Shown here: piece by piece, positions 11,343 through 30,598 of the stretch
How positions within the stretch are numbered: the first letter of the stretch is position 1
Layout of the letters: each line of letters begins with the position of its first letter
Assembly (NCBI GenBank): GCA_913778905.1
Contig: CAJYYA010000016.1
Coordinates: 186,001 to 250,000 of the forward strand
DNA length: 64,000 nt
Reading direction: 5' to 3'
Origin: an uncultured Naasia sp.
Lineage (GTDB): Bacteria; Actinomycetota; Actinomycetes; Actinomycetales; Microbacteriaceae
Notes under the pieces: generated by a model
Databases searched by the model: none
Seen by the model: the letters and a program-made list of their open reading frames with translations, nothing else
Told to the model about the DNA's origin: nothing
Program-made: the position numbers and the translations under genes

Positions 11343-14264
11343 TCAGAAGCCCCCGCTCGTCGTGCTGGTTCCACCCGACGCGGACGTGGTGAAGCTGTTG
11401 TTCGCCCCCGGTTGCCACTGATCAGCGGTGGACGGGTAGTTGGCTTCCGCGCGTTTGATGCATTTCCATTCGAACGTCGTGCTCGGCGGGAGGTCGTCGA
11501 TGACCCGCCTCCAGGTCGGGTAGGCGGTGGCGTCGAGCTTCACAGCGCTGGCGACGTTCCACGAGCCGAGCTGCGGAATGCTTCCGACGACGTAAACCGA
11601 CTGCCCCGGGGTGGTCTGCCCGTTGGTGCACTGGAACGTGGCCTTGGCGGTCGCCTCGCCCAGTGTGAAGGCGAAGGTCTTCGCCGCGGTTACGGCGGAC
11701 GGCGCCGCTTTCGCCACGACCAGATTGCCTCCGGCGTTGTACCAGCCCGATGTGGCCGCGTCGAAAGCCGCCTTGTCTGCGTGACGGGTGAGGGCCTGCC
11801 CCCCGAGGGTGACAGCGGAGGCCTGGGAGTCGCCGACCACCAGTTCGACGACCGTGCCCCGGGTACTCGGCGCTCCTGCATAGGTGCCGGCTGCGGCCTT
11901 CACCGTCACGGTCGCCGTCGCACCGGATCGTTGCTGCGTGACCTCGGTTGTGCGCACTGCGCCACCCGCATAGGCGGTGCTCGCGCCGTCGTCATCAAAG
12001 ACGGTGAAGGAACTCGCGGTCGCGGCCGGGTAGACGCGGGTGATCAGCTCGTTGCGGGTCGTCCCGTCGCTGCGCTTACCGACGATGTTCATCGTCGCGT
12101 CGTCGACGTACGCCTTCGGGATTATCGCTCCCGCCCGGACGTAGGCGGGCAGAGTGAAGACGCCTTCCCGGTACAGGGGCACATCGTTGATCCACTGACC
12201 CGTGCTGCTGATGACGTCGTTGGAGTGATAGTCGACCCACTCCCCCGCCGGTAGATACATGTTGCGCTGGCGTTCGCCCTCTGCCGCGACGACCCCGACG
12301 ATGATGTCCTTGCCGATCATCTTCTGATGACCCATCTCGCGGACGTTCTGATCGTTCTGGTAATTGAAGACCAGCGGCGGCACGATCGGTTCTCCGTAGA
12401 GGTTTGCCCGATGCGCGAGCGAGTAGTAATAGGGAGCGAGCTCGTAGCGTTGACGGATGTTCTCGCGGTTGCTCGCGATGTCGCCGATGCTGTCGGGCGC
12501 CACCTCGAGGCAGTTGCAGAGGTTCTCGGTGTGAGGCCGCACCGGGGTGTCGAACCACGCACTGTTGGCGAACCACTGCGTGTAGAGCTCATCGACGTCC
12601 CCCGTCGCCATCTCGCGACGGAAGCCGCCGATGTCCGATCCGTAGTAGTCGATCCCCGACATCGCCATGTGCATCTGCACGTTCTGCTGTGCCGCCAGTG
12701 CGCTGTACTTCGAGCCGATGTCCGCCGACCACATGGCGGTCCCGAACCTTTGGATACCGGCGGCTCCGGCACGTGCGAGCAGGAACGGACGGTTCGTCTC
12801 GTTGCCCCGCGCGTAGCCGTCGGAGATGCTCTGCGCCCACTCGAGCCCGTAGAGGTTGTGGTAGTCCGCGTGGGCGTGCTTGCCGGGGAGGACGCCCGCC
12901 GTCCAGTCACCGGCGTCGTACATCTCGGGTTCGCCCAGGTCGAGCCAGTGGCCGGTCACGCCGTCGTCGATGAGCGGGGCGCGCTTCTGATCGTGCCAAT
13001 AAGCGGAACCGGCGTCGTTCGTCCAGTCGATCATGCCGCCCTTGCCCCACCAGGGGTTGCCCGTCAGATAGACGGGCGCGCAGGTCGCGCAGCCCGCTCG
13101 AACCAGGTACCCCCGATTCTGCAGATCCTGGTGCTCGCTCAGCGCCTTGCCGACGTAGCTCTCCTCGATCGGGATCACACCGACCCCCTGCGAGGACTGC
13201 AGGTCGGCGATCTTCGCCGCGGGATTCGGGAACTTGGCCGTGTCCCACGACAGAGTGCCCATCCGAGTCGAGTCCGAGTTCGCCTGGACCCCGCCGAACC
13301 ACTGCAGATCGAGCATGACTCCATCGACCGGCATCTTGGCGTTCCGGAGTCCGGCGACGGTCTGATCCACCTCGCTCCAGCTGTCGAACCCGAACTCGGA
13401 CGCCCACAGACCGAGTGCCTTCTTGGGCGGCACGGGCGGCCGGCCGGTCAGCTCGAGATAGTCCTTTCGGAGGTCTAGCAGGTCGGGACCGGTCATCGTG
13501 TACCAGCGGATCTGGTCTCCGAACGTGTCGACCGTCCAGGGGTCGCCCTGGAGGTTCCACTCCTGCTTGTAGACGTGATCGAGCAGCATCCCGTAGTTCG
13601 CGTTCGAAGCGCCCACTGCGAACAGCACAGGGATCTGCGTGTTCCCGACGGGCCCGTTGTCGGAGTCGTAGACCATCGCGTTGCCGTACTCGCCGCCGGG
13701 GGTGCGCGATCGCCCCACCCAGTCGCCGTCGGCGCTGCCGCCCGGGAAGAACTGCGAGCCGAGTCCGTACGCGTTCTGCATGGAGGACTTCGTGATCGAG
13801 AGCCCCTTCCACGCCTGCGTCAGGTTACGAGGACAGACGGTGTGCAGCACGAGCGCGGGATTTCTCGTCGTGTCGGTCACCGTGGCGCAGAGCGTGCTCG
13901 CGTCCACCGAGACCGACATCGCGGCCGTGGTGAGGACGTTGCCCGAACGCGAGTAGGTGCTGGGCCCCGCGTAGTCCTTCTTCAACACCTGATCAGTGCT
14001 GAAGATCTGGGTCGCGGTCCCGGGGGAGGATCCCACGGCGGACAGCTCGAAATGGGCGAGGTCGTCGTCGAGCATCTCGACGACGAGGTAGCTCGACCCC
14101 GAGATGAACTCCGCACGTTGCACCCCCACCGCTGCCATCGCGGGAGTCGGGGTCTGGGCGAGCCCGACCCCCGCCGCTGCCACGAGGATCGCGACCCCCA
14201 GGGCGACCGAGCGGCCGAGTTCGCCCGTCGTCATCGACCGGGTCCGTCCTCTCCGCCCGTTCAT
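11343..14264 (-). CDS. ctsZ: Secreted GH31 enzyme with CBM20, probable 6-alpha-glucosyltransferase
   Basis: 973 residues with a long signal peptide (hydrophobic core SVALGVAILVAAAGVGLA, cleavage near AMA-AV). The GH31 barrel has the nucleophile in GHWLDLGEPEMYD (Asp442) and the acid/base in MWSADIGSKYSAL (Asp515). Residues about 872-960 are a CBM20 starch-binding domain (YVVGSIPQLGSW, FEWKCIKR, WQPGANNSF). In Bacillus and Arthrobacter, 6-alpha-glucosyltransferase (CtsZ) puts an alpha-1,6 glucose on starch chains and 3-alpha-isomaltosyltransferase (CtsY) makes the cyclic tetrasaccharide. Starch binding plus the tandem GH31 partner favour CtsZ for this one. The ATG overlaps the partner's stop (ATGA), fixing the start. 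A plain secreted alpha-glucosidase is the alternative. Confidence 0.75.
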   Translation of the reverse strand: MNGRRGRTRSMTTGELGRSVALGVAILVAAAGVGLAQTPTPAMAAVGVQRAEFISGSSYLVVEMLDDDLAHFELSAVGSSPGTATQIFSTDQVLKKDYAGPSTYSRSGNVLTTAAMSVSVDASTLCATVTDTTRNPALVLHTVCPRNLTQAWKGLSITKSSMQNAYGLGSQFFPGGSADGDWVGRSRTPGGEYGNAMVYDSDNGPVGNTQIPVLFAVGASNANYGMLLDHVYKQEWNLQGDPWTVDTFGDQIRWYTMTGPDLLDLRKDYLELTGRPPVPPKKALGLWASEFGFDSWSEVDQTVAGLRNAKMPVDGVMLDLQWFGGVQANSDSTRMGTLSWDTAKFPNPAAKIADLQSSQGVGVIPIEESYVGKALSEHQDLQNRGYLVRAGCATCAPVYLTGNPWWGKGGMIDWTNDAGSAYWHDQKRAPLIDDGVTGHWLDLGEPEMYDAGDWTAGVLPGKHAHADYHNLYGLEWAQSISDGYARGNETNRPFLLARAGAAGIQRFGTAMWSADIGSKYSALAAQQNVQMHMAMSGIDYYGSDIGGFRREMATGDVDELYTQWFANSAWFDTPVRPHTENLCNCLEVAPDSIGDIASNRENIRQRYELAPYYYSLAHRANLYGEPIVPPLVFNYQNDQNVREMGHQKMIGKDIIVGVVAAEGERQRNMYLPAGEWVDYHSNDVISSTGQWINDVPLYREGVFTLPAYVRAGAIIPKAYVDDATMNIVGKRSDGTTRNELITRVYPAATASSFTVFDDDGASTAYAGGAVRTTEVTQQRSGATATVTVKAAAGTYAGAPSTRGTVVELVVGDSQASAVTLGGQALTRHADKAAFDAATSGWYNAGGNLVVAKAAPSAVTAAKTFAFTLGEATAKATFQCTNGQTTPGQSVYVVGSIPQLGSWNVASAVKLDATAYPTWRRVIDDLPPSTTFEWKCIKRAEANYPSTADQWQPGANNSFTTSASGGTSTTSGGF

Positions 14265-17200
14265 CGCGAGAGTCCGATGCTGTCGAGGTTGATGCCGGTC
14301 GAGTTGCCTTGTGCGTATCCCACACGCAGCTTCTGTGCCCCCGCGGTGAGGTTAACCGGCAGGCTGGCGGTACCCCATGTGGCCCATCCGCCGGTGGGTG
14401 GCAGGGTCAGGGTTCCGACAGCCGTTCCGTTTCGATAGACGGTGCGGGTCGCGTTCGTCCCCGAGCCGTTCGAGTAACGCAGCACGACATCGTGGCTCGC
14501 CGCCGACTCAGCGAAGACATCCACCTCGACCGAGTCGCCGACCGATTCGAAGCCGTCCACGAAGCCCGTTCCGGTGTAGCCCGCATGGTTGGTGTTCGTC
14601 GAGACGCCGTTTCCGGCACCGAACTCGGCCTCGTAGGCGGCCTTGTCGACCCCGTTGAGGACGACGGAGCGCGCGGTGGTCGACGCGGTCGTCTTGACGA
14701 GCGTCAATTGCTGCGCCGGATCCCAGAACCAGCCCTGCGTCGCCGACTTCAATGCCGAGAGGGAGGCCGCTTGCGACACCGTCGCCCCGCCCACGGTGAC
14801 GCTCGACGGTTTGGTACCGGACACCTGGAGCGTGCTCTTCGTGGTCAGCGCGGGGAGCCCGACGGTCACCGTGTTGGCAACCCGGTCGGCGACCTGGGTG
14901 ATCTGCTTCGTCGTATCGGTGTCGTCGTCGAAGTAGCCGTAAGAGCTCGCCGACTGAGACGGGTAGACGCGGAACGTCAGGTTCGCGTACTGCTCGACGG
15001 AGTTGCCGATCGTCCCGCCCAGCTGATAGTCGGCATTGAGGTTGAGCGGGAGAACCGCGCCCGCCTTGGCGTAGACCGGGATGGTGTCGAGACCGGCGTT
15101 GTAGGTCTTGGCGCCCCCGGTCGCCCGGCCGCCGTTCCACAGGTCGTACCACTCGCCCTGGGGAAGGTAGAGATCCTTGCTCGTCGTCCCCTGCGACGTG
15201 ATCGGGGCGACCAGGAGGTTGCGGCCGTAGAGGTACTGCTGGTCCCGGCTCGCGGCCTGGGAATCCGACGGATAGGCGTAGGCCATGGCCTGCATCATCG
15301 GCGCCCCCGTCGCCGCCGAGTTGGTCGCTTCCGTGTAGGTGTAGGGCAGCAGGTTCATCCGCACGTTCGCGAATTTCGTGAAGGTAGGTACCACCGACGT
15401 GTCGCCGGTGCGGGCCTGGACGTTCCAGGGGGTCCGTGCCTCCGAGGGCGACGGATCGGCCTTCTCGGAGTGGTACTGCATGACCGGCGAGAAGGTCGCC
15501 TGCGCCGCCGAACGAAGGTAGAGCTCGGAGCTCGGGAAGCTGCCGGTGAAGCCGGCCAGGTCCCACGACCAGAACGGCACGCCGCTCTGACCTGCGCTCT
15601 GCCCCGCCCGCACGGCCTCCTGGAAGGCACCGAACGTCGACGACTGGTCGCCCGCCCAGAAGATCGAATTGCCCTGCGCGCCCGAGGTACCGGCGCGGCT
15701 GAAGAGCGCTCCGTCCGGACCGATCTTGTCGGCCACGTAATCCGCGTAGGCCCCGGTGTACTCGTTCGGGTAGGCGTTGTGCATCTCGTCACCCTTCCGC
15801 CCGTCGGCGAACTGGACGTCGCGACCGAAGACCGCCTCGCTGCCGTCCGTCTTGAAGCCGTCGATGCCCATTTCGTCCACCAGGTAGTCGCGCTTCGACA
15901 TCCACCAGTCGGTGGCCGCTTGCGAGGTGTAGTCGGGGATGGTGCTGTCGCCGAACCACTGCCCGGACGGGATCCGATAGGGCGATCCGTCGGCGTTCTT
16001 CGCGAGATACCCCTGCGCCGCCGCGTAGGAGCGGTCGTTCACGTGCTGCTGCGGCGCGGTCGACGGATTGCTGCTGAAGTTCTCCTTGAGCACAGGGATC
16101 TGCCAGAGCAAGACCTTGACCCCCTGCGCATGCGCCTGGTCGATCATCGCCTTCGGATCGGTCCACGGTCCGTTGGACGGGAACGAGAGATCGCTCGAGG
16201 AGAACTTGGCACTCCCTGCCTTCGGCGTGTAGTTCGCGCCCTTCCAGAGGTAGAAGGTGGCCTCATCGCTCCACTGCTCGAGCACCATCGCGGTGTGGGG
16301 GATGCCGGTCTGGTTCATCTTGGCCAGCTCGCCCTCCACCTCCGCCTGCGTGTTCCATTCGTTCGCCGAGCCCCAGAGCCCGAACGCCCACTTGGGCGGG
16401 AGAGCCGGACGCACGGTCGAGGCGGTGTAGTCGTCGAGCATCTCGGCGGGGGTACCGGTGAAGAACTGATAGGTGAGCGTGGAGCCGAGTGCTCCCGAGG
16501 TGTCGACCGTGAAACCGGCCATGTCGGACCGGGCGGTCGCGAGGTTGAAGATCGCGTTGCGGGTACTGGGTACGTGGACTCCGTATCCGGCCGAGTTCGT
16601 GAAGTAGGGGATCGACAGGTAGGTGCGCTTGCTCGCACCCTGGTCCTGATACTGGTTGTAGACGTAGTTGAGGACGTCGGAGCCCCGGTGATCGAGCCGG
16701 TCGTACCTCTCGCCGAACCCTTCGAAGCGCTCTCCGCTCGGGGTCAGCAGGTGGTCTTCGATCTTCGTGACGGTCGTCTCCCCGTCGCTCGCCCAACCGA
16801 TGTTCCGGAACTGCGTCGGATCGTACTGGCGGGTGATCAGAGTGGTGCCGTCACCCTTGTAGACGGATAGGCGGTACGGGTTCTTCTGGATCTTCAGCTG
16901 GAGGGCGGAGGTCGCGATGGTGACCGTGGACGAGTCCTGAGACACCGTGTAGGGCGCCGTGCCGCTGAGGGTCAGACCCGACCCGGTCGGCGAGATCTGG
17001 GTGTCGAATCCGTCCGCACGGGGGAACGCGTAGCGGATTCGGGGAGTGAAGTCACCGGCGCTGTCTCCCGTGACCAGGTCGACCGAAGTGCCGTTGTCGA
17101 CCACGTTCGTGATGCCGGTCACCTGGCTCCACGAGGTGGTGGAGAACGAGAACGGCGACGTCCTCTTCTGGTTGCCGCCGTTGACGTCGGCGTTCACGGT

Positions 17201-17611
17201 GTAGGAGATTCGATCGCCGCGGGCGAAGCTGCCGAGGTCGACGGTCCAATAGGTGTTGTTTCCCGAGTTGTAGGCGTACTGCGCTCCGATCGGGGTCTGG
17301 TCGACTCCGTTCTTCGACCAGGTCACCCATACGGTCTGGCCCGGGGCGATGGGCCAAGTCGTGGCGTTGATACGCACGGCTTCACCGGCCATCGGGTCGC
17401 GGGGCGCCCGCTCCGTCGCCGCTTGCGCGTAGACCTCGTCGTTGCCGTACGGGGAGTGGAACACCCCGTCGAGTCCCCCGGCCGCATAGGCGGGCGGAGC
17501 CGTCAGTGCGCCGATCGCGAGGCCGATCGCGGTGACGATGGCCGCGACGGATACCCGACGCTTGCCCCGCCGCGCGGTCGCGCGTCGCCCGGACTTTGTT
17601 ATCAACACCAT
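14261..17611 (-). CDS. ctsY: Secreted GH31 enzyme with CBM35, probable 3-alpha-isomaltosyltransferase
   Basis: 1116 residues, close to the Bacillus globisporus enzyme in size. Signal peptide up to PAYA-AGG; beta-sandwich domains; GH31 barrel with nucleophile Asp589 (GFKTDGSE) and acid/base Asp655 (WAGDQSSTF). The C-terminal 130 residues (AYEAEFGAGNGVS onward, NLDSIGLS at the end) are a CBM35. The catalytic region is much closer to the cytoplasmic GH31 of this locus than to the CBM20 enzyme, as expected if both act on isomaltosyl-1,3 links. It would join two isomaltosyl-1,3 units into a ring (CNN, cycloalternan). SD AAAGGGG sits 6 bases before ATG 17611. First gene of a two-gene operon. Confidence 0.77.
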   Translation of the reverse strand: MVLITKSGRRATARRGKRRVSVAAIVTAIGLAIGALTAPPAYAAGGLDGVFHSPYGNDEVYAQAATERAPRDPMAGEAVRINATTWPIAPGQTVWVTWSKNGVDQTPIGAQYAYNSGNNTYWTVDLGSFARGDRISYTVNADVNGGNQKRTSPFSFSTTSWSQVTGITNVVDNGTSVDLVTGDSAGDFTPRIRYAFPRADGFDTQISPTGSGLTLSGTAPYTVSQDSSTVTIATSALQLKIQKNPYRLSVYKGDGTTLITRQYDPTQFRNIGWASDGETTVTKIEDHLLTPSGERFEGFGERYDRLDHRGSDVLNYVYNQYQDQGASKRTYLSIPYFTNSAGYGVHVPSTRNAIFNLATARSDMAGFTVDTSGALGSTLTYQFFTGTPAEMLDDYTASTVRPALPPKWAFGLWGSANEWNTQAEVEGELAKMNQTGIPHTAMVLEQWSDEATFYLWKGANYTPKAGSAKFSSSDLSFPSNGPWTDPKAMIDQAHAQGVKVLLWQIPVLKENFSSNPSTAPQQHVNDRSYAAAQGYLAKNADGSPYRIPSGQWFGDSTIPDYTSQAATDWWMSKRDYLVDEMGIDGFKTDGSEAVFGRDVQFADGRKGDEMHNAYPNEYTGAYADYVADKIGPDGALFSRAGTSGAQGNSIFWAGDQSSTFGAFQEAVRAGQSAGQSGVPFWSWDLAGFTGSFPSSELYLRSAAQATFSPVMQYHSEKADPSPSEARTPWNVQARTGDTSVVPTFTKFANVRMNLLPYTYTEATNSAATGAPMMQAMAYAYPSDSQAASRDQQYLYGRNLLVAPITSQGTTSKDLYLPQGEWYDLWNGGRATGGAKTYNAGLDTIPVYAKAGAVLPLNLNADYQLGGTIGNSVEQYANLTFRVYPSQSASSYGYFDDDTDTTKQITQVADRVANTVTVGLPALTTKSTLQVSGTKPSSVTVGGATVSQAASLSALKSATQGWFWDPAQQLTLVKTTASTTARSVVLNGVDKAAYEAEFGAGNGVSTNTNHAGYTGTGFVDGFESVGDSVEVDVFAESAASHDVVLRYSNGSGTNATRTVYRNGTAVGTLTLPPTGGWATWGTASLPVNLTAGAQKLRVGYAQGNSTGINLDSIGLSR

Positions 17612-17619
17612 GTGAAACC

Positions 17620-17629
17620 CCTTTGTTCA
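17620..17629 (-). promoter_or_regulatory. TGAACAAAGG box, copy 1 (candidate ROK operator, overlaps SD)
   Basis: TGAACAAAGG on the minus strand, overlapping the ribosome site of the secreted GH31 gene. The same ten bases occur in the same place relative to the divergent ROK gene (17765-17774). It could be the binding site of the ROK repressor on both transcripts; part of the match (AAAGG) may simply be the SD. Confidence 0.4.
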
Positions 17630-17645
17630 CGGCTGTACGGAGAAA

Positions 17646-17674
17646 GTCGTAGTCGACGCCTCAACCCCTGTCAA
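17646..17674 (-). promoter_or_regulatory. Promoter of the secreted GH31 operon
   Basis: On the minus strand a perfect -35 TTGACA (17674-17669) is followed after 17 bases by TACGAC (17651-17646). Transcription would start near 17640, leaving a leader of about 30 bases with the SD of the first gene. Confidence 0.55.
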
Positions 17675-17729
17675 CAGGTAGACGGCGAGTCTCGCAGTAA
17701 GAATTTGTCCACCAGATCCGCACCAGGAC

Positions 17730-17758
17730 TTGCATCGCTAACCCGACCTGTGTTTATT
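17730..17758 (+). promoter_or_regulatory. Candidate promoter of the ROK-transporter-hydrolase operon
   Basis: TTGCAT (17730-17735), a 17-base spacer and TTTATT (17753-17758) lie in the most AT-rich part of the divergent region. The predicted start site falls at the TGAACAAAGG box. Confidence 0.4.
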
Positions 17759-17764
17759 TACTCC

Positions 17765-17774
17765 TGAACAAAGG
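17765..17774 (+). promoter_or_regulatory. TGAACAAAGG box, copy 2 (candidate ROK operator, overlaps SD)
   Basis: TGAACAAAGG, whose AAAGG is the ribosome site of the ROK gene (7 bases before ATG 17782). It also forms an imperfect inverted repeat with TGTTTA just upstream (TGTTTA, 8 bases, TGAACA). Confidence 0.4.
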
Positions 17775-17781
17775 TGTTGCG

Positions 17782-19035
17782 ATGAAGACTCGATTCTCCC
17801 GATCCGCCGACGTGCGCCGATCGGCGATCCTCGCCCAGGTGGGCGCCCAGGGCCCGGCCTCCCGCGCTGATCTCGCCCGAGCCCTCGGGGTCTCCCGGGC
17901 TCTGGTCACCCAGCTGACCAGAGAACTGCTCGCCGACGGATTCATGGTCGAGCTCGAGACCGCGTCCTCCCAGGGCGGGCGCCCGGGGCGCCTGCTCGGC
18001 CTGGCCTCCGCCGCAGGTCACTCGGTCGGCGTCAAGATCGCATCCGACCACGTGGCTTTCGTCGAGGCCCGCATCGACGGCGCTGTCCTCCGCAGCGCCA
18101 TCGAGCAGTTCGACGCGAGCTCCCCGGACGCACTCGATGCACTCGTCGCCCTCCTCGCGAGCTTCATCGCCGCCGGGGGCGGCGATCAGATCCTCGGGAT
18201 CGGGGTCGGACTCCCGGGGACCGTTGACGACCAGGGCGAGGGGCTCGTCGAGTCGACCCAGCTCGGCTGGAGCGGCGTGGCTCTCGGCGCCGCCCTGCGC
18301 AACGGCCTCGACCTCCCCGTCCTCATCGACAACAACGTCAGCGCCCTCAGCATGGCGGAGCTCCTCTACGGCGAGGGCCGTGCTTTCTCCTCCTTCCTGG
18401 TCGTCACCGTCGGCACCGGTATCGGCAGCGGCATCGTCTACGACGGCTCCGTCATGCGCGGGCATCGAGGCGGAGCCGGAGAGATCGGCCACATCCCCAC
18501 TATCGAGGACGGCCGCGCATGCCAGTGCGGCAACCAGGGGTGCCTCGAGGCCATCATCGGCGAGGCCGCCCTGGTCGAGAGGGCACGTGAGCTGGGGGTA
18601 ATCGGTCGCCTGTCGACCATGGCGTCACTGCTGGCGGAGGCGAATGCAGGCAACGCCGTCGCCCAGAAGGTCTTCGGCGATGCGGGCCATCTGCTCGGCC
18701 GCGCCCTGGCCGGCGTCGTGAACCTGCTCGACCCCGAGGCCGTGCTGCTGCTCGGCGAGGGAATCCCCGCGTGGCAGCACTGGGCGTTCGGCTTCGAGCC
18801 GGCCTTCCGGTCGTCGCTCATTCCGGCGAAACGTGATCTGCCCGTCATCGTCGAGTCCTGGCAGGACGACCGATGGGCACAGGGCGCAGCCGCGCTCGTG
18901 CTGGCGACCCCGTTCGACGTCGGGAACATCGCGGGCGACCAGGGCGAGCTGGTCCGTCAACGACTGAATGCGTCGGTGACCGACGACGGCGCTCTCGAGA
19001 CCACCGTCGAGAACGGCGCGGAGGCACTGAGATGA
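17782..19035 (+). CDS. ROK-family transcriptional regulator of the cyclic-glucan locus
   Basis: 417 residues. Residues 1-80 are a winged helix-turn-helix (ASRADLARALGVSRALVTQLTRELLADGFM). The rest is an ROK sugar-binding fold with LGIGVGLPGTVD, VTVGTGIGSG and the zinc motif GEIGHIP..CQCGNQGCLE. ROK repressors of this layout bind a sugar and release DNA. This one heads the import and breakdown operon and is divergent from the secreted enzymes, so it most likely controls both sides in response to an intermediate such as isomaltose or glucose. The TGAACAAAGG boxes are candidate sites. Its stop overlaps the permease ATG (ATGA). Confidence 0.9.
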   Translation: MKTRFSRSADVRRSAILAQVGAQGPASRADLARALGVSRALVTQLTRELLADGFMVELETASSQGGRPGRLLGLASAAGHSVGVKIASDHVAFVEARIDGAVLRSAIEQFDASSPDALDALVALLASFIAAGGGDQILGIGVGLPGTVDDQGEGLVESTQLGWSGVALGAALRNGLDLPVLIDNNVSALSMAELLYGEGRAFSSFLVVTVGTGIGSGIVYDGSVMRGHRGGAGEIGHIPTIEDGRACQCGNQGCLEAIIGEAALVERARELGVIGRLSTMASLLAEANAGNAVAQKVFGDAGHLLGRALAGVVNLLDPEAVLLLGEGIPAWQHWAFGFEPAFRSSLIPAKRDLPVIVESWQDDRWAQGAAALVLATPFDVGNIAGDQGELVRQRLNASVTDDGALETTVENGAEALR

Positions 19036-20000
19036 CTGCTCTCCAATCCCCTCCCGCCTCCGTCGTCGTTCGCGGCGCTCCGGTCCGAGCCCAGCGGCCC
19101 ACGGCCCGGGGCCTGGGACGTCCTCGCCGATCCCGTCTCCGCTACGCGCTCATCGTGCTCGCCTTCCTGCTTCCGAGCGCCGTCCCGCTGACCCTGTTCA
19201 CGCTCGTGCCGATGGGGGCCGCGTTCTGGGTCAGCCTTCACGAGTGGAACCTCATCGGCCCCATGAAGTGGGTCGGTCTGGACAATTACGTCTCGCTGGC
19301 CGGAGATCCCGACACCCGCCGTGCCTTCGGGAACACCGTCTACTACATCGTGGGTTATCTGCCGCTCGTCTACATCGGCGGTCTCGCCATCGCGCTCGCC
19401 CTGAACTCGCGCATGCCGGCGCGCGCTTTCCTACGCGGCATCTACTTCCTGCCCGTGGTCACCAGCTGGATCGTCGTCGCCCTCGTCTGGCGCTGGTTGC
19501 TGAACCCCGAGTACGGCGTCGTGAACTACGCGCTCGGTCTTGTCGGAATCGACGGGCCCGGCTGGTGGACCGACCCGGCCTGGGCGATGCCCTCGATCAT
19601 CCTCGCCTCGGCGTGGAAGGACCTCGGCTTCGTGATGGTCATCCTGCTCGCGGGCCTGCAGGCCATTCCCCGCGACCTGTACGAAGCCGCGACGGTCGAC
19701 GGCGCGGGCTGGTGGCGGCGGCTCTTCTCCATCACGCTTCCCATGCTCTCGCCCTCGACGTTCTTCGTGATCGTCATCTCGCTCATCAACGGATTCCAGG
19801 TCTTCGATCAGGTCTACGCCATGACCGGGGGTGGACCGGCGGGATCGAGCCAGGTCGTCGTCCAGCAGGTCTACGACCTCACGTTCCGCTACGGACGAGC
19901 CGGAGAGGCCTCCGCGCTCTCCTGGATGCTCTTCGTCGTCGTCCTCGCCATCACCATCGTGCAGCTGCGCGGACAGAAGAAGTGGGTCAATTATGCGTAA
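19032..20000 (+). CDS. ABC sugar importer permease, MalF type
   Basis: 322 residues from ATG 19032, chosen because it overlaps the ROK stop (ATGA). Six membrane helices follow a basic N-terminus. The cytoplasmic EAA loop, which docks the ATPase, is DLYEAATVDGAGWWRRLFSITLP. NGFQVFDQVYAMTGGGPAGSS is the usual MalF-family end. It pairs with the MalG-type protein encoded next, overlapping it by 8 bases. Given its place between the ROK regulator and the cytoplasmic glucosidases, the expected cargo is the cyclic tetrasaccharide or its linear fragments. Confidence 0.92.
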   Translation: MTALQSPPASVVVRGAPVRAQRPTARGLGRPRRSRLRYALIVLAFLLPSAVPLTLFTLVPMGAAFWVSLHEWNLIGPMKWVGLDNYVSLAGDPDTRRAFGNTVYYIVGYLPLVYIGGLAIALALNSRMPARAFLRGIYFLPVVTSWIVVALVWRWLLNPEYGVVNYALGLVGIDGPGWWTDPAWAMPSIILASAWKDLGFVMVILLAGLQAIPRDLYEAATVDGAGWWRRLFSITLPMLSPSTFFVIVISLINGFQVFDQVYAMTGGGPAGSSQVVVQQVYDLTFRYGRAGEASALSWMLFVVVLAITIVQLRGQKKWVNYA

Positions 20001-20805
20001 GCCCGCCGTCCTGACCCTCACCATCGTCGTAGCCGTCGGCGCGGTGGCGATGTTCTTCCCCTTCCTCTGGACCCTCGTCACCTCGGTCTCGAGCGGGGCC
20101 GGGCTGTCGGCGACACCTCAGCTGATCCCTGCCGACCCGTCGCTGGACGCTTACGGCGAACTCTTCGACAACACGCCCTTCCTCCAGGTGGTCCTCAACA
20201 GCCTGGGACTCGCGGTCGCCACGACGCTCGCGCAACTGACGACCAGCGCCCTGGCCGCCTATGCCTTCAGCAGGCTGCCGTTCCGCGGCAGCAACCTGGT
20301 GTTCGGCATCTACCTCGCCACCATGATGATTCCGATCCAGGTCCTCATCGTCCCGCTCTTCGTAGAGATCAAGACCCTGGGGCTGCTGAACACGCACCTC
20401 GGCGTGCTGCTCCCCGGCATCGCCTCGGCCTTCGGGGTGTTCCTGCTCCGCCAGGCCATGAGCGCGGTCCCGCGTGAGCTCGACGAGGCAGCGACCATCG
20501 ACGGGGCCGGCCACTTCCGCATCTTCGGCACGATCGTGCTCCCCCTCATCGGCCCGGCCCTCGCGACGCTGACGGTGTTCGCATTCATGAGCAGCTGGAA
20601 CAGCTTCCTGTGGCCGCTCATCGTGCTCCGCACTCCCGAACTGCAGACCCTGCCCATCGCCCTCGCGGGCCTGCAAGGGCAATACACGACCGAGTGGGAC
20701 GTGCTCATGGCGGGCTCCGTCATCAGCGTCCTCCCCATGGTCGCCATCTACGTCTTCGCCCAACGGTTCGTCATCCAGGGCGTCGCCAACACCGGGATCA
20801 AATAG
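19993..20805 (+). CDS. ABC sugar importer permease, MalG type
   Basis: 270 residues with six helices, starting at ATG 19993, which overlaps the end of the previous gene by 8 bases. The EAA loop is ELDEAATIDGAGHFRIFGTIVLP. The ending FVIQGVANTGIK is the normal MalG-family C-terminus (usually GLTAGAVKG). It forms the channel with the MalF-type partner. No ATP-binding subunit is encoded anywhere in the locus, so the transporter must borrow a shared ATPase of the MsiK type encoded elsewhere, as is usual for sugar importers in actinobacteria. Confidence 0.92.
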   Translation: MRKPAVLTLTIVVAVGAVAMFFPFLWTLVTSVSSGAGLSATPQLIPADPSLDAYGELFDNTPFLQVVLNSLGLAVATTLAQLTTSALAAYAFSRLPFRGSNLVFGIYLATMMIPIQVLIVPLFVEIKTLGLLNTHLGVLLPGIASAFGVFLLRQAMSAVPRELDEAATIDGAGHFRIFGTIVLPLIGPALATLTVFAFMSSWNSFLWPLIVLRTPELQTLPIALAGLQGQYTTEWDVLMAGSVISVLPMVAIYVFAQRFVIQGVANTGIK

Positions 20806-20867
20806 CGCACCGGCGTAACAGTCACCACCGCAGTACCTGTCACGACAATCGAAGGAGATTGCACAGC

Positions 20868-22121
20868 ATGTTCCGTTCCACCCACCTGACCGCCGCGGCC
20901 GCCGCGGCCGCCGTCATCGCTCTCGCCCTCGCCGGCTGCTCTTCGGGGGACTCCGGGAACGCGAGCGACGGACCGGTGACGATCACGTACTCGAACTTCA
21001 TCTCGAACGGCGGCAACGAGGAGAACCTCGAAACCATCGTGAGCGCATTCGAAGCCGAGAACCCCGACGTCACGGTCGAAGTCACGACCCTCCCCTACGC
21101 CGACTACTTCACGACCCTGCAGACCGACCTGGCGGCCGGCACCCAGGCCGACGTGTTCGACATCGAGTACGCGAACTTCGGCACGTACGTCAAGGACGGC
21201 GTCATCGCGCCCCTCGAGGGAGTCGACACGAGCGTCTACCGCGAGTCGCTGGCGGAGGCCTACGCATCCGACGGTACGCAGTACGCACTGCCGAGCTCGT
21301 TCTCCGATGTGGTCCTCTTCTACAACTCCGACCTGTTCGACAAGGCGGGGCTCGACTACCCGACCTCAGACTGGACCTGGGCCGACGAGAAGGCCGCCGC
21401 GGCGAAGCTGACCGATCAGGCCGCGGGCGTCTGGGGCGACTATCAGCCCATCACCTTCTACGAGTACTACAAGGCCGTCGCGCAGGCCGGGGGCGACTTC
21501 CTCTCGGCCGACGGCACCGCCACCGCGTTCGACTCCCCCGAGGGCATCGCCGCCGCGGAGTGGCTGGTCGGCAAGAGCGGAACAGTCATGCCGACAACCG
21601 AACAGGGTGCGGGCACCCCCGACTACGACAGCGGCCTCTTCCTCGAAGGGAAGCTCGCCATGTGGCACTCGGGTATCTGGATGTTCGGCGCGATGGCCGA
21701 TGCGCCCTTCACCTGGGACATCGCCGTCGAACCGGGCGACACCGAGAAGGCCAGCGCGCTCTTCTCCAACGCCGTCGCGGTCTCGGCCACCTCGGCTCAG
21801 AAGGAGGCCGCCCAGGACTTCGCCGAGTTCCTCACCTCTTCGAAGACCATGGTGGAGACCCGCCTCGACGCTGGATGGGAACTGCCGCCCGTCGCCGACG
21901 ACAGCCTGCTGACCTCGTACCTCGACAAGGGTGCTCCCGCCAACCGTCAGGCCGTCTTCGACTCGCTCGAGGCCGTCGCCCTGCCCCCGATCGCCGCTAC
22001 CGGCCAGACCGAGATGCAGGACATCGTCACGGAGGAGCTGTCCGAGGCTGCGGCCGGTCGCAAGACCGTCGAGGAGGCCGTCTCGTCAGCCGCGCAGCGC
22101 GTCGACGCAGTCATCGGCTGA
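20868..22121 (+). CDS. Sugar-binding lipoprotein of the ABC importer
   Basis: 417 residues. The start ATG 20868 follows GAAGGAG at 20851. The leader ends in a lipobox LALAGC with the lipidated Cys24, then a Ser/Gly/Asp linker. The body is a family 1 extracellular solute-binding protein (ITYSNFISNGGNEENLETIV, LAAGTQADVFDIEYANFG, LEGKLAMWHSGIWMFG). It would capture the sugar at the outer face of the membrane and deliver it to the two permeases. It belongs to the same operon, 62 bases after the MalG-type gene and 45 before the GH15 gene. Confidence 0.93.
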   Translation: MFRSTHLTAAAAAAAVIALALAGCSSGDSGNASDGPVTITYSNFISNGGNEENLETIVSAFEAENPDVTVEVTTLPYADYFTTLQTDLAAGTQADVFDIEYANFGTYVKDGVIAPLEGVDTSVYRESLAEAYASDGTQYALPSSFSDVVLFYNSDLFDKAGLDYPTSDWTWADEKAAAAKLTDQAAGVWGDYQPITFYEYYKAVAQAGGDFLSADGTATAFDSPEGIAAAEWLVGKSGTVMPTTEQGAGTPDYDSGLFLEGKLAMWHSGIWMFGAMADAPFTWDIAVEPGDTEKASALFSNAVAVSATSAQKEAAQDFAEFLTSSKTMVETRLDAGWELPPVADDSLLTSYLDKGAPANRQAVFDSLEAVALPPIAATGQTEMQDIVTEELSEAAAGRKTVEEAVSSAAQRVDAVIG

Positions 22122-22166
22122 GCCGAGCCCCGACTTCCCCACCGATCATCAGCAGGAGAACCTCTC

Positions 22167-23279
22167 GTGACACTCGCCCCTCCCCGCGGCTACGACACCC
22201 TGACCGCGGCATCCATCGACCTCATCTCGAGTCTGCAGGAGCCGAGCGGCGCTTATCCGGCGTCGCCCGACTTCTCGGCCTACACCGGCTACAGCTGGTT
22301 CCGGGACGGCGCGTTCATCGCGGACGGGATGTCGGCCGCGGGGCAGCGCGAATCGGCCGAGCGCTTCTTCGACTGGTGCGCCGGGATCCTCCACCGGTAC
22401 CGCTCGACGGTCGATGAGATCGTCGAGCGGGCCGACGGGGACGACCCGGTCGACGGCGAGCACATGATGCCGGCCCGGTTTCTCTTCGACGGGACCGTCG
22501 GCGAGGAGGAATGGGGCAATTTCCAGCTTGACGGCTACGGGACCTGGGTCTGGGCCGCCGTCGCCCACGGCGCTCGACACAACGCGTCACTCGATCGTTG
22601 GGCCGACGCGATCGTCGCCACCTGCGAATACCTCGCCAGTTCCTGGCATCGCGAGTGCTGGGACTGGTGGGAGGAACATCCCGAACGCATCCACGTGTCG
22701 ACGCTCGGCTGCGTGGGCGCAGGGTTGCAGGCCGGCATCGACTCCGGAGTGCTGGGGGACGCTCTCGTTACGCGCTGCGAGGCGGCGATCATCGGGATCC
22801 GCAAGCTCATCGAGCACCGCGGCATCCGGAACGGGCACCTCGTCAAATGGCTCGACGACGATGCCGTCGATGCGAGCACCCTCGCGATCATCGCCCCGCT
22901 CGGCTTCATCGATCCGGCGGGCGAAGTAGCCGCCCGGACCATCGTCGCGGTCCGGTCGCAACTCGAGGTCGACGGCGGGATGCACAGGTTCCTGGCCGAC
23001 GAGTTCTTCGGCGGCGGTCGCTGGCCGCTGCTCACCTGCTTCCTGGGGCTGTGCCTGGCGCGACGCGGAGATCTCGACGGCGCCCGTGCAGCACTCGCCT
23101 GGGCCTCCTCGACGGCACTCGCCAGCGGGGACCTGCCCGAGCAGGTCGGCGGGCACCTCCTGAACCCCGAGTTCGAGCAGTTCTGGATCGACAAATGGGG
23201 TCCGGTGGCGACACCGCTGCTGTGGAGCCACGCCATGTTCCTGCGTCTCGACGCGGCGGTCGTGGAGCTCGAGGCGTGA
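22167..23279 (+). CDS. Cytoplasmic GH15 enzyme, probable isomaltose glucohydrolase
   Basis: 370 residues without signal peptide, from GTG 22167 with CAGGAG 8 bases upstream. The fold is the GH15 alpha-barrel: YTGYSWFRDGAFIADGM and DGYGTWVWA line the glucose site. Glu169/Glu170 in WWEEHPERIHVSTLG are the candidate acid, and Glu335 in LLNPEFEQFW is the candidate base. In Kribbella flavida a cytoplasmic GH15 beside a GH31 is isomaltose glucohydrolase (EC 3.2.1.205), which finishes CNN breakdown. Same size, same neighbours and no secretion signal support that role. The alternative is a trehalase or dextran glucosidase of GH15. Its stop overlaps the next GTG (GTGA). Confidence 0.8.
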   Translation: MTLAPPRGYDTLTAASIDLISSLQEPSGAYPASPDFSAYTGYSWFRDGAFIADGMSAAGQRESAERFFDWCAGILHRYRSTVDEIVERADGDDPVDGEHMMPARFLFDGTVGEEEWGNFQLDGYGTWVWAAVAHGARHNASLDRWADAIVATCEYLASSWHRECWDWWEEHPERIHVSTLGCVGAGLQAGIDSGVLGDALVTRCEAAIIGIRKLIEHRGIRNGHLVKWLDDDAVDASTLAIIAPLGFIDPAGEVAARTIVAVRSQLEVDGGMHRFLADEFFGGGRWPLLTCFLGLCLARRGDLDGARAALAWASSTALASGDLPEQVGGHLLNPEFEQFWIDKWGPVATPLLWSHAMFLRLDAAVVELEA

Positions 23280-25525
23280 TCCGGCACACCGCAGGCGGAT
23301 CCGGACACCCGTACTCGATCGACACCGGTCAGCGGGATCCGGTCGTCCCCGTCGCGGGCGCGCCCGTCCGCCTCGGGGTACGGACATCGGCGGATGTGGA
23401 ATCGGTCGTCTGCGACATCGCCATCACCTCGGCGAGCGGAGAAAGCCGGCACCTCGAGGCGGCCCTCTCCCCCGCCGCGAACACCTCCCGGGGGCGTACC
23501 GTCGACGGGGGCCACCTCGCATCGGCGCAGGCCCGACTCGCCCGCGCCCAGGCCGGATGGTCGGTATCAGTCAGCGATCTGCACCCCGACGACTCCGTCG
23601 AGTACCGCTTCGCGGCGACGACGTCCTCGGGCGCGACGCAGCGGACGCGGACCTTCACGACTCGGGTCGCCGGATGGCGACCGTTCGACGGAGCGGTGAA
23701 AGTGGACGGTACGGTCGACCGGCTCGTGCCGGGCAGCGTCGAAGTGCTCGACGACGGAGCGCGTATCAGTAGAGCGCGGTTCGCGCTGTCACTGGACGCG
23801 GCCGAACGAGTCACGGGACTGGGCGAGCGCTACGACCGTCTCGAGCACCGCGGACAGACCCTCGACTCGGTCGTGTTCGAGCAGTACAAGAGCCAGGGCG
23901 CAGAGCGGAAGACCTACCTCCCGATGCCGTTCGCCCATGTCGTGGGCGGCGAGGGGTGGGGCTTCCACGTGCGTTCATCCCGTCGCGTGTGGTTCGACAT
24001 CGGGGCCACCCGATCCGATCGGCTCGTCGTGGAGGCAGCGGTCGATGCCCCGTCCGAGGCGCCCACCGTGCTCGACCTCGCCGTGTACTCAGGTACGCCC
24101 ACCGAGGTGCTCCGGTCGTTCCTCGACGAAGTCGGACGCCCGGAGGAGCTGCCCGAATGGGTCTTCTCCCTGTGGGCCAGCGGCAACGAATGGAACACCC
24201 AGGCCGAGGTCGAGCGCCAGATGGCTCTGCACCGCGAGCATCGGATCCCCGTCGGCTCGGTGGTGATCGAGGCCTGGAGCGATGAGAGCACCTTCACGGC
24301 GTTCCGCGACGCCCGCTACGAGGTCTCCGAGGACGGCGCACCGCATCGCCTCGGCGACTTCACGTTCCCGGCCGACGGTGCATGGCCGGATCCGAAGGGG
24401 ATGATCGACGCTCTGCACGAGCAGGATGTGCGCGTCCACCTCTGGCAGATCCCGCTGATCAAGCTGCGTCCCCACCCCCGAGGGCAAGCCGCTGCCGATG
24501 CCCGATCGGCGATCGAGGAGAAGGTGCTCATCGAGGAGCCGACTCCCACCGGCGGAACCCGCCCCTACCGGAATCGCGGCTGGTGGTTCCCGCTCTCCCT
24601 CATGCCCGACCTCACGGACGACGTCGCGGCGGCCTGGTGGACCGAGAAGCGCCGCTACCTCGTCGAAGAACTCGGAGTCGACGGCTTCAAGACCGACGGT
24701 GGGGAGCATGCGTGGGGTGACGAGCTCGTCTACCTCGACGGGCGGCGCGGAGGTGAGAAGAACAACCTGTTCCCGGTCCACTACGCCAAGGCCTACGGCG
24801 ATCTGCTGAGATCCGCCGGCAAAGCCCCCGTGACCTTCAGCCGGGCCGGATTCACGGGCTCGCAAGCCCACGGGGCGTTCTGGGCGGGCGACGAGAACTC
24901 CACCTGGCAGGCGTTCCGGTGGTCGATGCTCGCCGGCCTGTCCGCCGCCGCTTCGGGCATCGTCTACTGGGGATGGGACATCGCAGGCTTCTCCGGAGAG
25001 ATCCCGGACAGCGAGCTCTACCTGCGGGCGATGGCCGCCTCGGCGTTCGTTCCGATCATGCAGTACCACTCGGAGTTCAACCACCATCGCAGCCCGTCGG
25101 TCGACCGGACTCCGTGGAACATCCAAGAACGCACGGGCGACGACCGCGTCATTCCGATCACCCGGTCGATCGTGGAGCTGCGCGAGCGCCTGAAGCCCTA
25201 TCTGGTCGCTCAGACCCGGACCGCCATCGAGACCGGCGCCCCGCTCATGCGCCCGCTCTATTTCGATCACCCCGGTGACACGGCCGTCTGGGATCACCCT
25301 CTGCAGTGGCTGCTGGGCGACGACCTTCTGGTCGCGCCCGTCGTCGAGCCCGGCGCGACCTCGTGGGACGTCTACGTGCCCGCCGGCGACTGGGTGGACG
25401 GCCGCGACGGGTCGTCGTGCGCGAACGGCGTCATCACGGTGGATGCGCCGATCGAGCACCCCGTCGTGCTGTGTCGTCGCACGGCATGGGAGGCGGGATT
25501 ACGGGAGGTGCTGCGCCAGGACTGA
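23276..25525 (+). CDS. Cytoplasmic GH31 enzyme, probable 1,3-alpha-isomaltosidase
   Basis: 749 residues, GTG start overlapping the GH15 stop, no signal peptide. GH31 barrel with nucleophile Asp474 (GFKTDGGE) and acid/base Asp539 (WAGDENSTW). The motifs YDRLEHRG, ASGNEWNTQAEVE and MQYHSEFNHHRSPS parallel the secreted CBM35 enzyme of this locus, so both probably read an isomaltosyl-1,3 substrate. In Kribbella the corresponding enzyme (EC 3.2.1.204) cuts CNN and its linear form to isomaltose, which the GH15 then hydrolyses. Last gene of the operon, ending inside a terminator stem. It could instead be a general alpha-glucosidase or xylosidase of GH31. Confidence 0.8.
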   Translation: MIRHTAGGSGHPYSIDTGQRDPVVPVAGAPVRLGVRTSADVESVVCDIAITSASGESRHLEAALSPAANTSRGRTVDGGHLASAQARLARAQAGWSVSVSDLHPDDSVEYRFAATTSSGATQRTRTFTTRVAGWRPFDGAVKVDGTVDRLVPGSVEVLDDGARISRARFALSLDAAERVTGLGERYDRLEHRGQTLDSVVFEQYKSQGAERKTYLPMPFAHVVGGEGWGFHVRSSRRVWFDIGATRSDRLVVEAAVDAPSEAPTVLDLAVYSGTPTEVLRSFLDEVGRPEELPEWVFSLWASGNEWNTQAEVERQMALHREHRIPVGSVVIEAWSDESTFTAFRDARYEVSEDGAPHRLGDFTFPADGAWPDPKGMIDALHEQDVRVHLWQIPLIKLRPHPRGQAAADARSAIEEKVLIEEPTPTGGTRPYRNRGWWFPLSLMPDLTDDVAAAWWTEKRRYLVEELGVDGFKTDGGEHAWGDELVYLDGRRGGEKNNLFPVHYAKAYGDLLRSAGKAPVTFSRAGFTGSQAHGAFWAGDENSTWQAFRWSMLAGLSAAASGIVYWGWDIAGFSGEIPDSELYLRAMAASAFVPIMQYHSEFNHHRSPSVDRTPWNIQERTGDDRVIPITRSIVELRERLKPYLVAQTRTAIETGAPLMRPLYFDHPGDTAVWDHPLQWLLGDDLLVAPVVEPGATSWDVYVPAGDWVDGRDGSSCANGVITVDAPIEHPVVLCRRTAWEAGLREVLRQD

Positions 25526-25552
25526 GCGGGCAATCGGTCCGACTCAGTCCTG
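25517..25552. terminator. Bidirectional terminator containing both stop codons
   Basis: A perfect 10-bp stem, CAGGACTGAG (25517-25526) with CTCAGTCCTG (25543-25552), and a 16-base loop. The stop codons of the convergent GH31 and xanthine dehydrogenase genes are both part of the stem. Confidence 0.65.
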
Positions 25553-28504: not shown

Positions 28505-29313
28505 GCGCCCATCTCCAGCTCTGAACGGATCTCTTCGAGCAGCACCCGTGAGACGCCGAGGCGCCAGTCTGCGCTGCCCAGGGGGTCGCTGTAGTAACCG
28601 TCCGCGGCCGTGACGTCTGCAGCCAGGGCCGCTGCGCCCGGCAGAGCCGAGTAGCGCAGGACGACCGGAGTGAGAGTCGCAGCGGTGATGCTGAAGACCG
28701 CGGATCCGTCCGCGTCGACGCGGCCGGTCAGCACCGCGCCGGACCGCCCCAGCTCGGCGAGAGCGATCTTCCGGTACCCGGTGCGGGCCCGCAGGGCGTG
28801 CTCGGGGATGTGGATGCTGCGCAGCACGTCGCCGGGGCGCAGGTGGTTCTCCGCGTTGCCGGCCATGAGGTCGACGACGGAGACGGTGTAGTCCGATCCG
28901 TCGGCGGACCACACGAATGCGGTCGCGTCGAGCGCCGCGCTCAGCGACACCATCCCGGCCGCGGCGAACGACTGGCAGATGTTGCCGCCGACGGTCGCGG
29001 TGTTCCAGATCTTGAAGGATGCGAGCAGCGCCGAGGCGCACTGGGCGAAGAGCGGCTGAGCGTGCCAGCCGTCCTGTTGGGGAAGGGCGAGGAGGTCGGC
29101 GATCGTGCAGGTGGCCGCGACGATGAGCCCGCCGTCCTCCGGCAATTCCAGCGGCGTCCACCCCATGGACGTGATGTCGACGAATCCGCTCGTCTCGAGC
29201 TGAGGCTCGGAGTACAGCCAGGTGCCGCCGCCGAGGATCTTCTCGCCCTGCTCGAGAGCGAGATCCGCCCGGGTGGTGGCGCGGCGGTAGGTCGTGACCG
29301 TATTCAGATCCAT
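28501..29313 (-). CDS. Xanthine dehydrogenase FAD-binding subunit
   Basis: 270 residues, the usual size of the medium subunit. [12 protein letters not shown] and the stretch [21 protein letters not shown] are the two FAD-binding signatures of the CoxM/XdhB family, followed by the CO-dehydrogenase flavoprotein C-terminal domain. The FAD subunit takes electrons from the iron-sulfur clusters and passes them to NAD or oxygen. Translation is coupled to the fused Fe-S/Mo gene by an ATGA overlap. The upstream gap to the phosphorylase gene (219 bases) holds a long inverted repeat rather than a gene. Confidence 0.9.
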
Positions 29314-29427
29314 GCCGACTCCGTCCGCTTCGATGCCATCCGTCTCGACCGCGATGCCGCGGGCGTCCTGTCAGTGAACACCACCCGGGTGACGCGGGTG
29401 TTACGGCCCTCCCGCCCCGCGCGGTCA

Positions 29428-29515: not shown

Positions 29516-29532
29516 GACGGGGGCCGAGCGGG

Positions 29533-30555: not shown

Positions 30556-30598
30556 TGACCAGCGCGTGGGGTCCTGCCGGCGGCGGACCGAGACCGGG

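What the first reader, a model, noticed from the sequence alone, without database searches (positions are those of the whole stretch)
11343..25525. A complete make-import-degrade locus for the cyclic tetrasaccharide CNN in one place
Two secreted GH31 enzymes (one with CBM20, one with CBM35), a ROK regulator, an ABC sugar importer, a cytoplasmic GH15 and a cytoplasmic GH31 lie in two divergent operons. All catalytic Asp/Glu residues are present. Known: in Bacillus and Arthrobacter, 6-alpha-glucosyltransferase and 3-alpha-isomaltosyltransferase make cyclic nigerosylnigerose from starch; in Kribbella flavida a separate cluster (regulator, transporter, GH31 1,3-alpha-isomaltosidase, GH15 isomaltose glucohydrolase) degrades it. 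Here both halves are joined. Inference: the cell turns starch into a private ring sugar and takes it back.
Basis: partly seen in the sequence, partly recalled or inferred. Interest (0 to 1): 0.85.

Follow-up and report, generated by a model that had tools for sequence, protein, structure and literature searches.

The report
Make-and-eat locus for a ring sugar
This bacterium most likely carries, side by side, the genes that turn starch fragments into a small ring-shaped sugar outside the cell and the genes that take the ring back in and digest it; the pathway is already known, but among its relatives genomes that can only eat the ring seem commoner than those that also make it.

Summary
Window 11343-25525 carries two divergent operons: a secreted GH31-CBM20 and a secreted CAFE-type GH31; and ROK, two permeases, SBP, GH15 and a cytoplasmic GH31. 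Four parts have direct solved relatives: CAFE Lmo2446 (1128 bits, 49%), the CNN-binding SBP Lmo0181 (307 bits, next 89), 1,3-alpha-isomaltosidase (857) and isomaltose glucohydrolase (344). The 6-alpha-glucosyltransferase role of GH31-CBM20 rests on context: it directly follows CAFE in 16 of 16 named actinobacterial loci, but is a deep branch whose kinship to the Firmicute 6GT is unsettled. The importer lacks its own ATPase. A 14-base element preceding both operons occurs exactly twice in the genome, supporting joint control. The pathway is known: Listeria makes and binds CNN, and the 'exclusive ring' idea is in print for CMM. Added here: the 16 actinobacterial relatives join both halves; the halves have conflicting trees; of 349 genomes of the window's family, 1 has the maker genes, while 32 others match CAFE only partly, as consumer-type GH31 (21 read; 20 have the whole consumer set, none the maker genes nearby). 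So the ring is probably not private. Ordinary membership, interesting distribution.

The parts
11343..14264 (-). secreted GH31 with C-terminal CBM20; proposed 6-alpha-glucosyltransferase (P0001)
   Evidence: Pfam; directly follows CAFE in 16 of 16 named actinobacterial loci; CBM20 in 16 of 16 members of alignment A2, i.e. P0001 and 15 of the 16 loci; no relative over 32% identity in the other genomes of a 396-genome phylum sample at E <= 1e-30
14261..17611 (-). secreted CAFE-type GH31, 3-alpha-isomaltosyltransferase / cycloalternan-forming enzyme (P0002)
   Evidence: Lmo2446/CAFE 1128 bits over residues 42-1113, 49% identity; Lmo2446-like_N and CBM6/CBM35
17616..17629 (-). 14-base element TGAACAAAGGGGTT, 4 bases before the P0002 start codon; candidate operator (GAAC-N6-GTT)
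   Evidence: one of only two copies in the genome at up to 1 mismatch; kept in 5 of 5 single-ROK divergent relatives
17765..17778 (+). 14-base element TGAACAAAGGTGTT, 3 bases before the ROK start codon; second copy of the candidate operator
17782..19035 (+). ROK-family transcription regulator (P0003)
   Evidence: Pfam ROK 166 bits plus MarR-like N-terminus just under its cut-off
19032..20000 (+). ABC sugar permease 1 (P0007)
   Evidence: BPD_transp_1
19993..20805 (+). ABC sugar permease 2 (P0008)
   Evidence: BPD_transp_1
20868..22121 (+). sugar-binding protein, CNN-binding type (P0009)
   Evidence: best solved match Lmo0181 5f7v, 307 bits, next 89 bits; 41% identity
22167..23279 (+). GH15 isomaltose glucohydrolase type (P0005)
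   Evidence: its five solved matches are all Kribbella isomaltose glucohydrolase 5z3a and variants, best 344 bits
23276..25525 (+). cytoplasmic GH31 1,3-alpha-isomaltosidase type (P0006)
   Evidence: AIMA-like_N; 5x3i 857 bits, 5f7s 817 bits

Best explanation
The locus encodes the cyclic nigerosyl-nigerose (CNN, cycloalternan) route of starch use. Outside the cell, the GH31-CBM20 enzyme binds starch or maltodextrin and moves single glucose units from 1,4 to 1,6 linkage, leaving isomaltosyl ends (inferred). The CAFE enzyme moves isomaltosyl groups onto the 3-OH of another and closes the tetrasaccharide ring (strong homology). The SBP catches the ring, and the two permeases with a shared MsiK-type ATPase bring it in (SBP specificity by homology; ATPase inferred). 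Inside, the GH31 1,3-alpha-isomaltosidase opens the ring and cuts isomaltose units, and the GH15 splits isomaltose to glucose (strong homology). The ROK protein controls both divergent operons through the paired element (inferred). Shown here: gene content, intact active sites, homology, co-inheritance, the unique paired element. Not shown: any activity, binding or product.
For: CAFE identity: 1128 bits full length, 49%, one clade with Listeria, Cohnella and Clostridiaceae CAFE (97/99; 98/96). SBP: Lmo0181, which PMC7676653 describes as the CNN-binding protein, far ahead of all other solved SBPs. Degraders. CBM20 starch-binding domain on the proposed 6GT in 16 of 16 members of A2. 16 of 16 named actinobacterial loci keep CAFE plus GH31-CBM20 beside consumer genes. 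In two searches not seeded with CAFE (396 phylum and 349 family genomes) close relatives of P0001 were found only in the window's genome, plus one truncated tail in G547. The shared element occurs exactly twice in the 3.2 Mb assembly.
Against: P0001 is not shown to belong with the Firmicute 6GT (23-25% identity): with Agd31B in the tree it joins Agd31B (98/95; AU p 0.0395 against P0001+CtsZ; 98/94 and 0.0345 on core columns); without Agd31B it joins CtsZ weakly (65/52). Agd31B transfers to the 4-OH (PMC9061262). P0001's best solved matches by sequence are a dextranase and Agd31B, with the known 6GT lower. The predicted fold does not discriminate. No ATPase in the cluster. No secreted amylase was identified in the genome (not exhaustive). 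The element overlaps the likely ribosome-binding site, a consensus promoter scan found nothing, and the element is missing from functional positions in 9 of 16 relatives.
Confidence: 0.82

Rival explanations
1. The GH31-CBM20 enzyme is not a 6-alpha-glucosyltransferase but a disproportionating 4-alpha-glucosyltransferase or alpha-glucosidase that only trims starch; the isomaltosyl donors come from elsewhere (panose, partly degraded alternan or dextran), and CAFE makes the ring from those.
For: Groups with Agd31B when Agd31B is in the tree, and shares its DLGEPEM active-site stretch; dextranase and Agd31B are the best solved matches.
Against: It stands directly after CAFE in 16 of 16 actinobacterial loci. 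A 1,284-1,313-aa GH31 stands there in 6 of 6 distinct Firmicute loci; four of these six were put in the tree and fall with the solved 6GT, and the one searched directly matches it at 1891 bits. P0001's family was not found as an intact gene in the other genomes of two samples, and it carries a starch-binding domain. Long branches make the Agd31B grouping unsure (warning).
Confidence: 0.2
2. The locus makes and uses a related but different ring or oligosaccharide (a pentasaccharide, or 1,3/1,6 alternating open chains) rather than CNN itself.
For: A cyclic pentasaccharide made with 6GT and isomaltosyltransferase is cited in PMC4616184; product identity cannot be read from sequence.
Against: The best solved match of the SBP is Lmo0181, described with bound CNN in PMC7676653; the degraders match CNN-degrading enzymes (the CNN role of the Kribbella pair is from a reference title and recall).
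Confidence: 0.1
3. The two operons are separately regulated neighbours: a general starch-attack operon and a scavenging operon for rings made by others.
For: The halves have conflicting trees, and consumer-only loci are common in the family; 8 of 16 relatives have a second ROK beside CAFE.
Against: The same 14-base element precedes both operons and is found nowhere else in the genome at up to 1 mismatch, and both copies are kept in 5 of 5 single-ROK relatives.
Confidence: 0.1

Closest known systems
Cycloalternan pathway of Listeria monocytogenes (Light et al. 2016; seen only as a reference and as discussed in PMC7676653)
   Same: CAFE (Lmo2446), CNN-binding SBP (Lmo0181), making from maltodextrin by 6GT and isomaltosyltransferase; ROK regulator (recalled)
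   Different: In four other Listeria species the gene after CAFE is a 1,297-1,313-aa GH31 (CBM35 and no CBM20 in the one scanned, L054), here a 973-aa GH31-CBM20. Here the degraders are the Kribbella pair and all parts lie in one locus. Listeria costaricensis also keeps CAFE, 6GT-type GH31, ROK and transporter together
Kribbella flavida CNN catabolism: 1,3-alpha-isomaltosidase and isomaltose glucohydrolase (Tagami et al. 2016, seen as a reference in PMC12446779)
   Same: P0006 and P0005 have these as closest solved relatives (that 5x3i is the Kribbella enzyme is recalled)
CtsY/CtsZ of Bacillus globisporus (Sporosarcina globispora) and Arthrobacter globiformis A19
   Same: Secreted isomaltosyltransferase and 6GT that make the cyclic tetrasaccharide; B. 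globisporus activities noted in PMC4616184; gene order and the A19 strain are recalled
CMM pathway of Arthrobacter globiformis M6 (cmmA-G, PMC7676653)
   Same: Same logic: make a cyclic tetrasaccharide from starch outside, import, degrade inside
   Different: GH13 enzymes, one maker enzyme, 1,4/1,6 linkages
Cycloisomaltooligosaccharide pathway (Paenibacillus 598K, Tepidibacillus; PMC13084667)
   Same: A 6-alpha-glucosyltransferase (Paenibacillus 598K; solved as 5x7o) feeds ring formation from 1,4-glucan; ring-binding SBP; Tepidibacillus also has an isomaltose glucohydrolase gene
   Different: The ring former is cycloisomaltooligosaccharide glucanotransferase (GH66, PMC5408701), rings of seven or more glucoses

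Membership tests
CNN/cycloalternan pathway | CAFE / 3-alpha-isomaltosyltransferase | tested here: met
   full-length 1128 bits to Lmo2446, 49% identity, same clade 97/99; by homology only
CNN/cycloalternan pathway | 6-alpha-glucosyltransferase orthologous to the characterised Firmicute enzyme | tested here: inconclusive
   23-25% identity to six Firmicute CtsZ-type proteins; AU p 0.0395 and 0.0345 against a joint clade, but joined at 65/52 when Agd31B is left out
CNN/cycloalternan pathway | CNN-specific binding protein | tested here: met
   by homology: Lmo0181 307 bits against 89 for the next; binding itself not testable
CNN/cycloalternan pathway | complete importer including ATPase in the locus | tested here: not met
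   no ATPase among the eight genes; one MalK-type OB domain elsewhere in the genome. Shared MsiK ATPases are usual for actinobacterial sugar importers (established knowledge), so this does not exclude the pathway
CNN/cycloalternan pathway | ring-opening 1,3-alpha-isomaltosidase | tested here: met
   AIMA-like_N domain and 857 bits to 5x3i; by homology only
CNN/cycloalternan pathway | isomaltose glucohydrolase (GH15) | tested here: met
   344 bits to 5z3a; all five solved hits are this protein or variants; by homology only
CNN/cycloalternan pathway | CNN formed from starch | not testable with these tools
   needs enzyme assay
Agd31B-type 4-alpha-glucosyltransferase | P0001 in the Agd31B clade | tested here: inconclusive

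The most novel reading that the evidence does not exclude
In Actinobacteria the CNN maker genes (CAFE plus a CBM20-bearing 6GT of its own GH31 branch, recruited independently of the Firmicute 6GT) are an add-on that has joined a commoner ring-scavenging operon more than once. Makers then run both under one operator-regulator system, and CNN is a contested public good rather than a private sugar.
Probability: 0.3. Interest if true: 0.6.

Novelty: new member of a known kind. Interest (0 to 1): 0.45.

Why it matters
The pathway itself is known, but the genomes give a clean, testable setting for a question usually asked of siderophores: who pays for an extracellular product and who merely collects it. 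Relatives differ by whether they carry the maker genes; one genome without them (L125) has a consumer half 76-87% identical to the window's. The CBM20-bearing enzyme may also be a second route to a 6-alpha-glucosyltransferase within GH31.

Tried and rejected
A first AlphaFold model of P0001 on a 16-sequence alignment was poor (pLDDT 49.9) and was not searched. A second on 30 sequences was good (pLDDT 80.0, pTM 0.86), but the comparison with solved structures does not separate GH31 activities: top rows are an alpha-N-acetylgalactosaminidase, lysosomal alpha-glucosidase, dextranase FjDex31A and the Paenibacillus 6GT 5x7o, the last with an unusable rmsd of 26.9. The plain Foldseek 'pdb' table was not obtained.

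Recent transfer of the maker genes as judged by composition: not supported. GC3 of the maker genes (0.869, 0.884) lies within the range of the other six genes (0.857-0.923); their lower overall GC comes from first codon positions.

Consensus promoters near the paired element: none found. By eye there is TTGACA with a TACGAC 17 bases on before CAFE, which the scan's rule excludes; it is not used as evidence.

PF22681 (Lmo2446-like_N) passed its cut-off in 3 of 396 phylum genomes; apart from the window's own (115 bits), G069 (34 bits) lies on an isomaltosidase-type gene and G214 (34 bits) overlaps a sub-threshold AIMA-like_N match (not followed further). The weak hits in G150 and G007 also fall on isomaltosidase-type genes. 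None was counted as CAFE. L059 (29% to the CAFE tail only) was dropped, and L055 was counted together with L050 (same contig, same match).

Secreted amylase: reading the longest ORF of eight GH13 loci was inconclusive.

In print: nothing found on an actinobacterial combined CNN locus or on makers versus consumers, in searches of an open-licence library only, of which listings were seen; subscription papers, including those on A. globiformis A19, Kribbella and the Listeria pathway, could not be read. Read: abstract, outline and sections 3, 11, 12 and 15 of PMC7676653; passages only of PMC9061262, PMC12446779, PMC13084667, PMC5408701 and PMC4616184.
Full report
What is there. The window lies in a genome of 3.2 Mb in 23 contigs. 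Eight intact genes form two divergent operons between a DEAD-box helicase gene and a xanthine-dehydrogenase-like gene. The two minus-strand genes overlap by 4 bases, as do ROK and permease 1, and GH15 and the cytoplasmic GH31; the permease genes overlap by 8 (coordinates).

Ring closing. P0002 matches the cycloalternan-forming enzyme Lmo2446 over residues 42-1113 with 1128 bits, 49% identity over the aligned part, including the Lmo2446-like N-terminal domain. Solved variants of CAFE (5f7u) and of the Trueperella degrading enzyme (5i0g) replace exactly the aspartates that align with D589 and D655. In the careful trees it sits in one clade with Listeria, Cohnella and Clostridiaceae CAFE (97/99; 98/96 on core columns).

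Uptake. The best solved match of the binding protein is Lmo0181 (307 bits; next 89 bits; 41% identity). PMC7676653 lists Lmo0181 as the CNN-binding protein and shows its complex with CNN. P0009 passes no NCBIfam cut-off. The cluster lacks an ATPase; one MalK-type OB domain lies on another contig in a 393-aa frame, so a shared ATPase is inferred.

Breakdown. P0006 carries the AIMA-like N-terminal domain and matches 5x3i (857 bits) and the Trueperella enzyme 5f7s (817 bits). P0005 matches only the isomaltose glucohydrolase 5z3a and its variants (344 bits). That 5x3i is the Kribbella 1,3-alpha-isomaltosidase is recalled; that 5z3a is from Kribbella is in PMC12446779.

The weak link. The GH31-CBM20 protein P0001 is assumed to be the 6-alpha-glucosyltransferase. 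The gene that follows CAFE in Cohnella (L051) matches the Paenibacillus 6GT 5x7o with 1891 bits (the entry's title is), so the Firmicute 6GT is clear. P0001 matches 5x7o with only 147 bits, below the dextranase FjDex31A (212) and the 4-alpha-glucosyltransferase Agd31B (192). In trees with Agd31B, P0001's clade joins Agd31B (98/95; 98/94), and a joint clade with the Firmicute 6GT is weakly rejected (AU p 0.0395 and 0.0345); the tool warns of long branches. Without Agd31B it joins the Firmicute 6GT at 65/52. A good predicted fold does not decide. The positive case is contextual. P0001's homolog directly follows CAFE in 16 of 16 named actinobacterial loci at 62-81% identity. All 16 members of alignment A2 (P0001 and 15 of the 16 loci, L047 left out) carry CBM20, whereas the Firmicute 6GT-type proteins scanned (2 of 6) have CBM35 and no CBM20. 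In the other genomes of a 396-genome phylum sample no relative above 32% identity appears at E <= 1e-30, two candidates per genome being scored.

Comparison of gene order. The named scan (two peptide patterns only, so not exhaustive) gave 24 loci: 16 actinobacterial CAFE loci, 6 distinct Firmicute ones (L050 and L055 counted once), and L059, dropped. All 16 actinobacterial loci have CAFE, GH31-CBM20, ROK, both permeases and SBP; 15 have complete GH15 and isomaltosidase matches, and in L040 the fetched flank ends inside GH15. Three layouts occur: divergent with one ROK (5, plus the window), divergent with a second ROK beside CAFE (8), and all on one strand (3).

Regulation. TGAACAAAGGNGTT occurs exactly twice in the genome at up to one mismatch, against none for the backward control: 17616-17629 minus, 4 bases before the CAFE start codon, and 17765-17778 plus, 3 bases before the ROK start codon. 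In the window 0.13 matches at up to two mismatches are expected and 3 were found, the third with 2 mismatches at 28417. Both copies, with at most 1 mismatch, are kept in 5 of 5 single-ROK divergent relatives; L042 has one before CAFE (1 mismatch) and L048 one before ROK (2). The other 9 of 16 have none in such a place (L041 has one inside CAFE). Of 27 stretches from genomes without maker genes, 6 have a copy at up to 1 mismatch of a slightly looser pattern, with L125 an exact one before ROK. The GAAC-N6-GTT half-sites suit a ROK operator (inference), but the element overlaps the likely ribosome-binding site, so part of the conservation may be translational.

Different histories. A tree of CAFE plus GH31-CBM20 and a tree of the two permeases, SBP, GH15 and isomaltosidase over the same 17 loci disagree: the consumer tree groups Arthrobacter with the Microbacteriaceae and the Propionibacteriaceae MAG (100/100), the maker tree groups it with Kribbella and Kibdelosporangium and their like (100/100); the maker data reject the consumer grouping (AU p 0.0016). 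The group was chosen after seeing the identities, so the p-value is optimistic.

Makers and consumers. Among 349 genomes of the window's family, full-length CAFE and an intact P0001-type gene were each found in 1, the window's own (two candidates per genome were scored); one more (G547) has only the tail of a P0001-type gene. Another 32 have a GH31 that matches CAFE only over its middle (within residues 254-890) at 39-44%. Neighbourhoods of 17-19 kb were read for 21 of these 32 (19, two): 20 of 21 hold the ROK-permease-permease-SBP-GH15-isomaltosidase set (in L101 with three genes in pieces), 1 (L122) has GH15 and isomaltosidase with a different transporter, and 0 of 21 has CAFE or a P0001-type gene there. 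Five loci from farther genomes also lack maker genes; one of them (L104) lacks GH15, and in three (L105-L107) the ROK match is only 33-41%. L125 is 76-87% identical to the window's consumer half. At phylum depth both halves are rare: of 396 genomes the isomaltosidase domain passes its cut-off in 4, own included, and CAFE's domain in 3, only the window's own being strong. Hence, in this family at least, rings can be collected by more genomes than make them, which argues against 'private'. Consumer loci could in principle serve another 1,3/1,6 glucan fragment, but 18 of 19 SBPs keep 49-84% identity to the window's.

Known or new. PMC7676653 says that CNN is formed from maltodextrin by two L. monocytogenes enzymes and argues that a ring is an exclusive form of starch carbon for the related CMM pathway; PMC9061262 lists the two makers and the degrading enzyme. 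The pathway and the idea are therefore known. The locus is a new member of that kind, with an actinobacterial first enzyme of unsettled ancestry.

Noticed in passing
window 25544-34148: Downstream neighbours look like purine breakdown: xanthine-dehydrogenase-like protein, phosphorylase, nucleoside hydrolase, XdhC.
   Followed up: no
   Followed up: partly
   Followed up: no
L050 and L055 (contig DUMB01000040.1): The two ends of this Clostridiaceae MAG contig give the same 19 kb match in opposite orientation; perhaps an assembly artefact.
   Followed up: no
L050 4242-7994 and L051 6339-9899: A further Firmicute GH31 on the same stretch as CAFE and sister to it (86/88 to 95/93), in L051 with an Lmo2446-like N-terminal domain; perhaps the Firmicute ring-opening enzyme.
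   Followed up: partly
   Followed up: no
L058 9998-13073: CAFE of Listeria marthii is split into two frames; whether real or a sequencing error was not tested.
   Followed up: no
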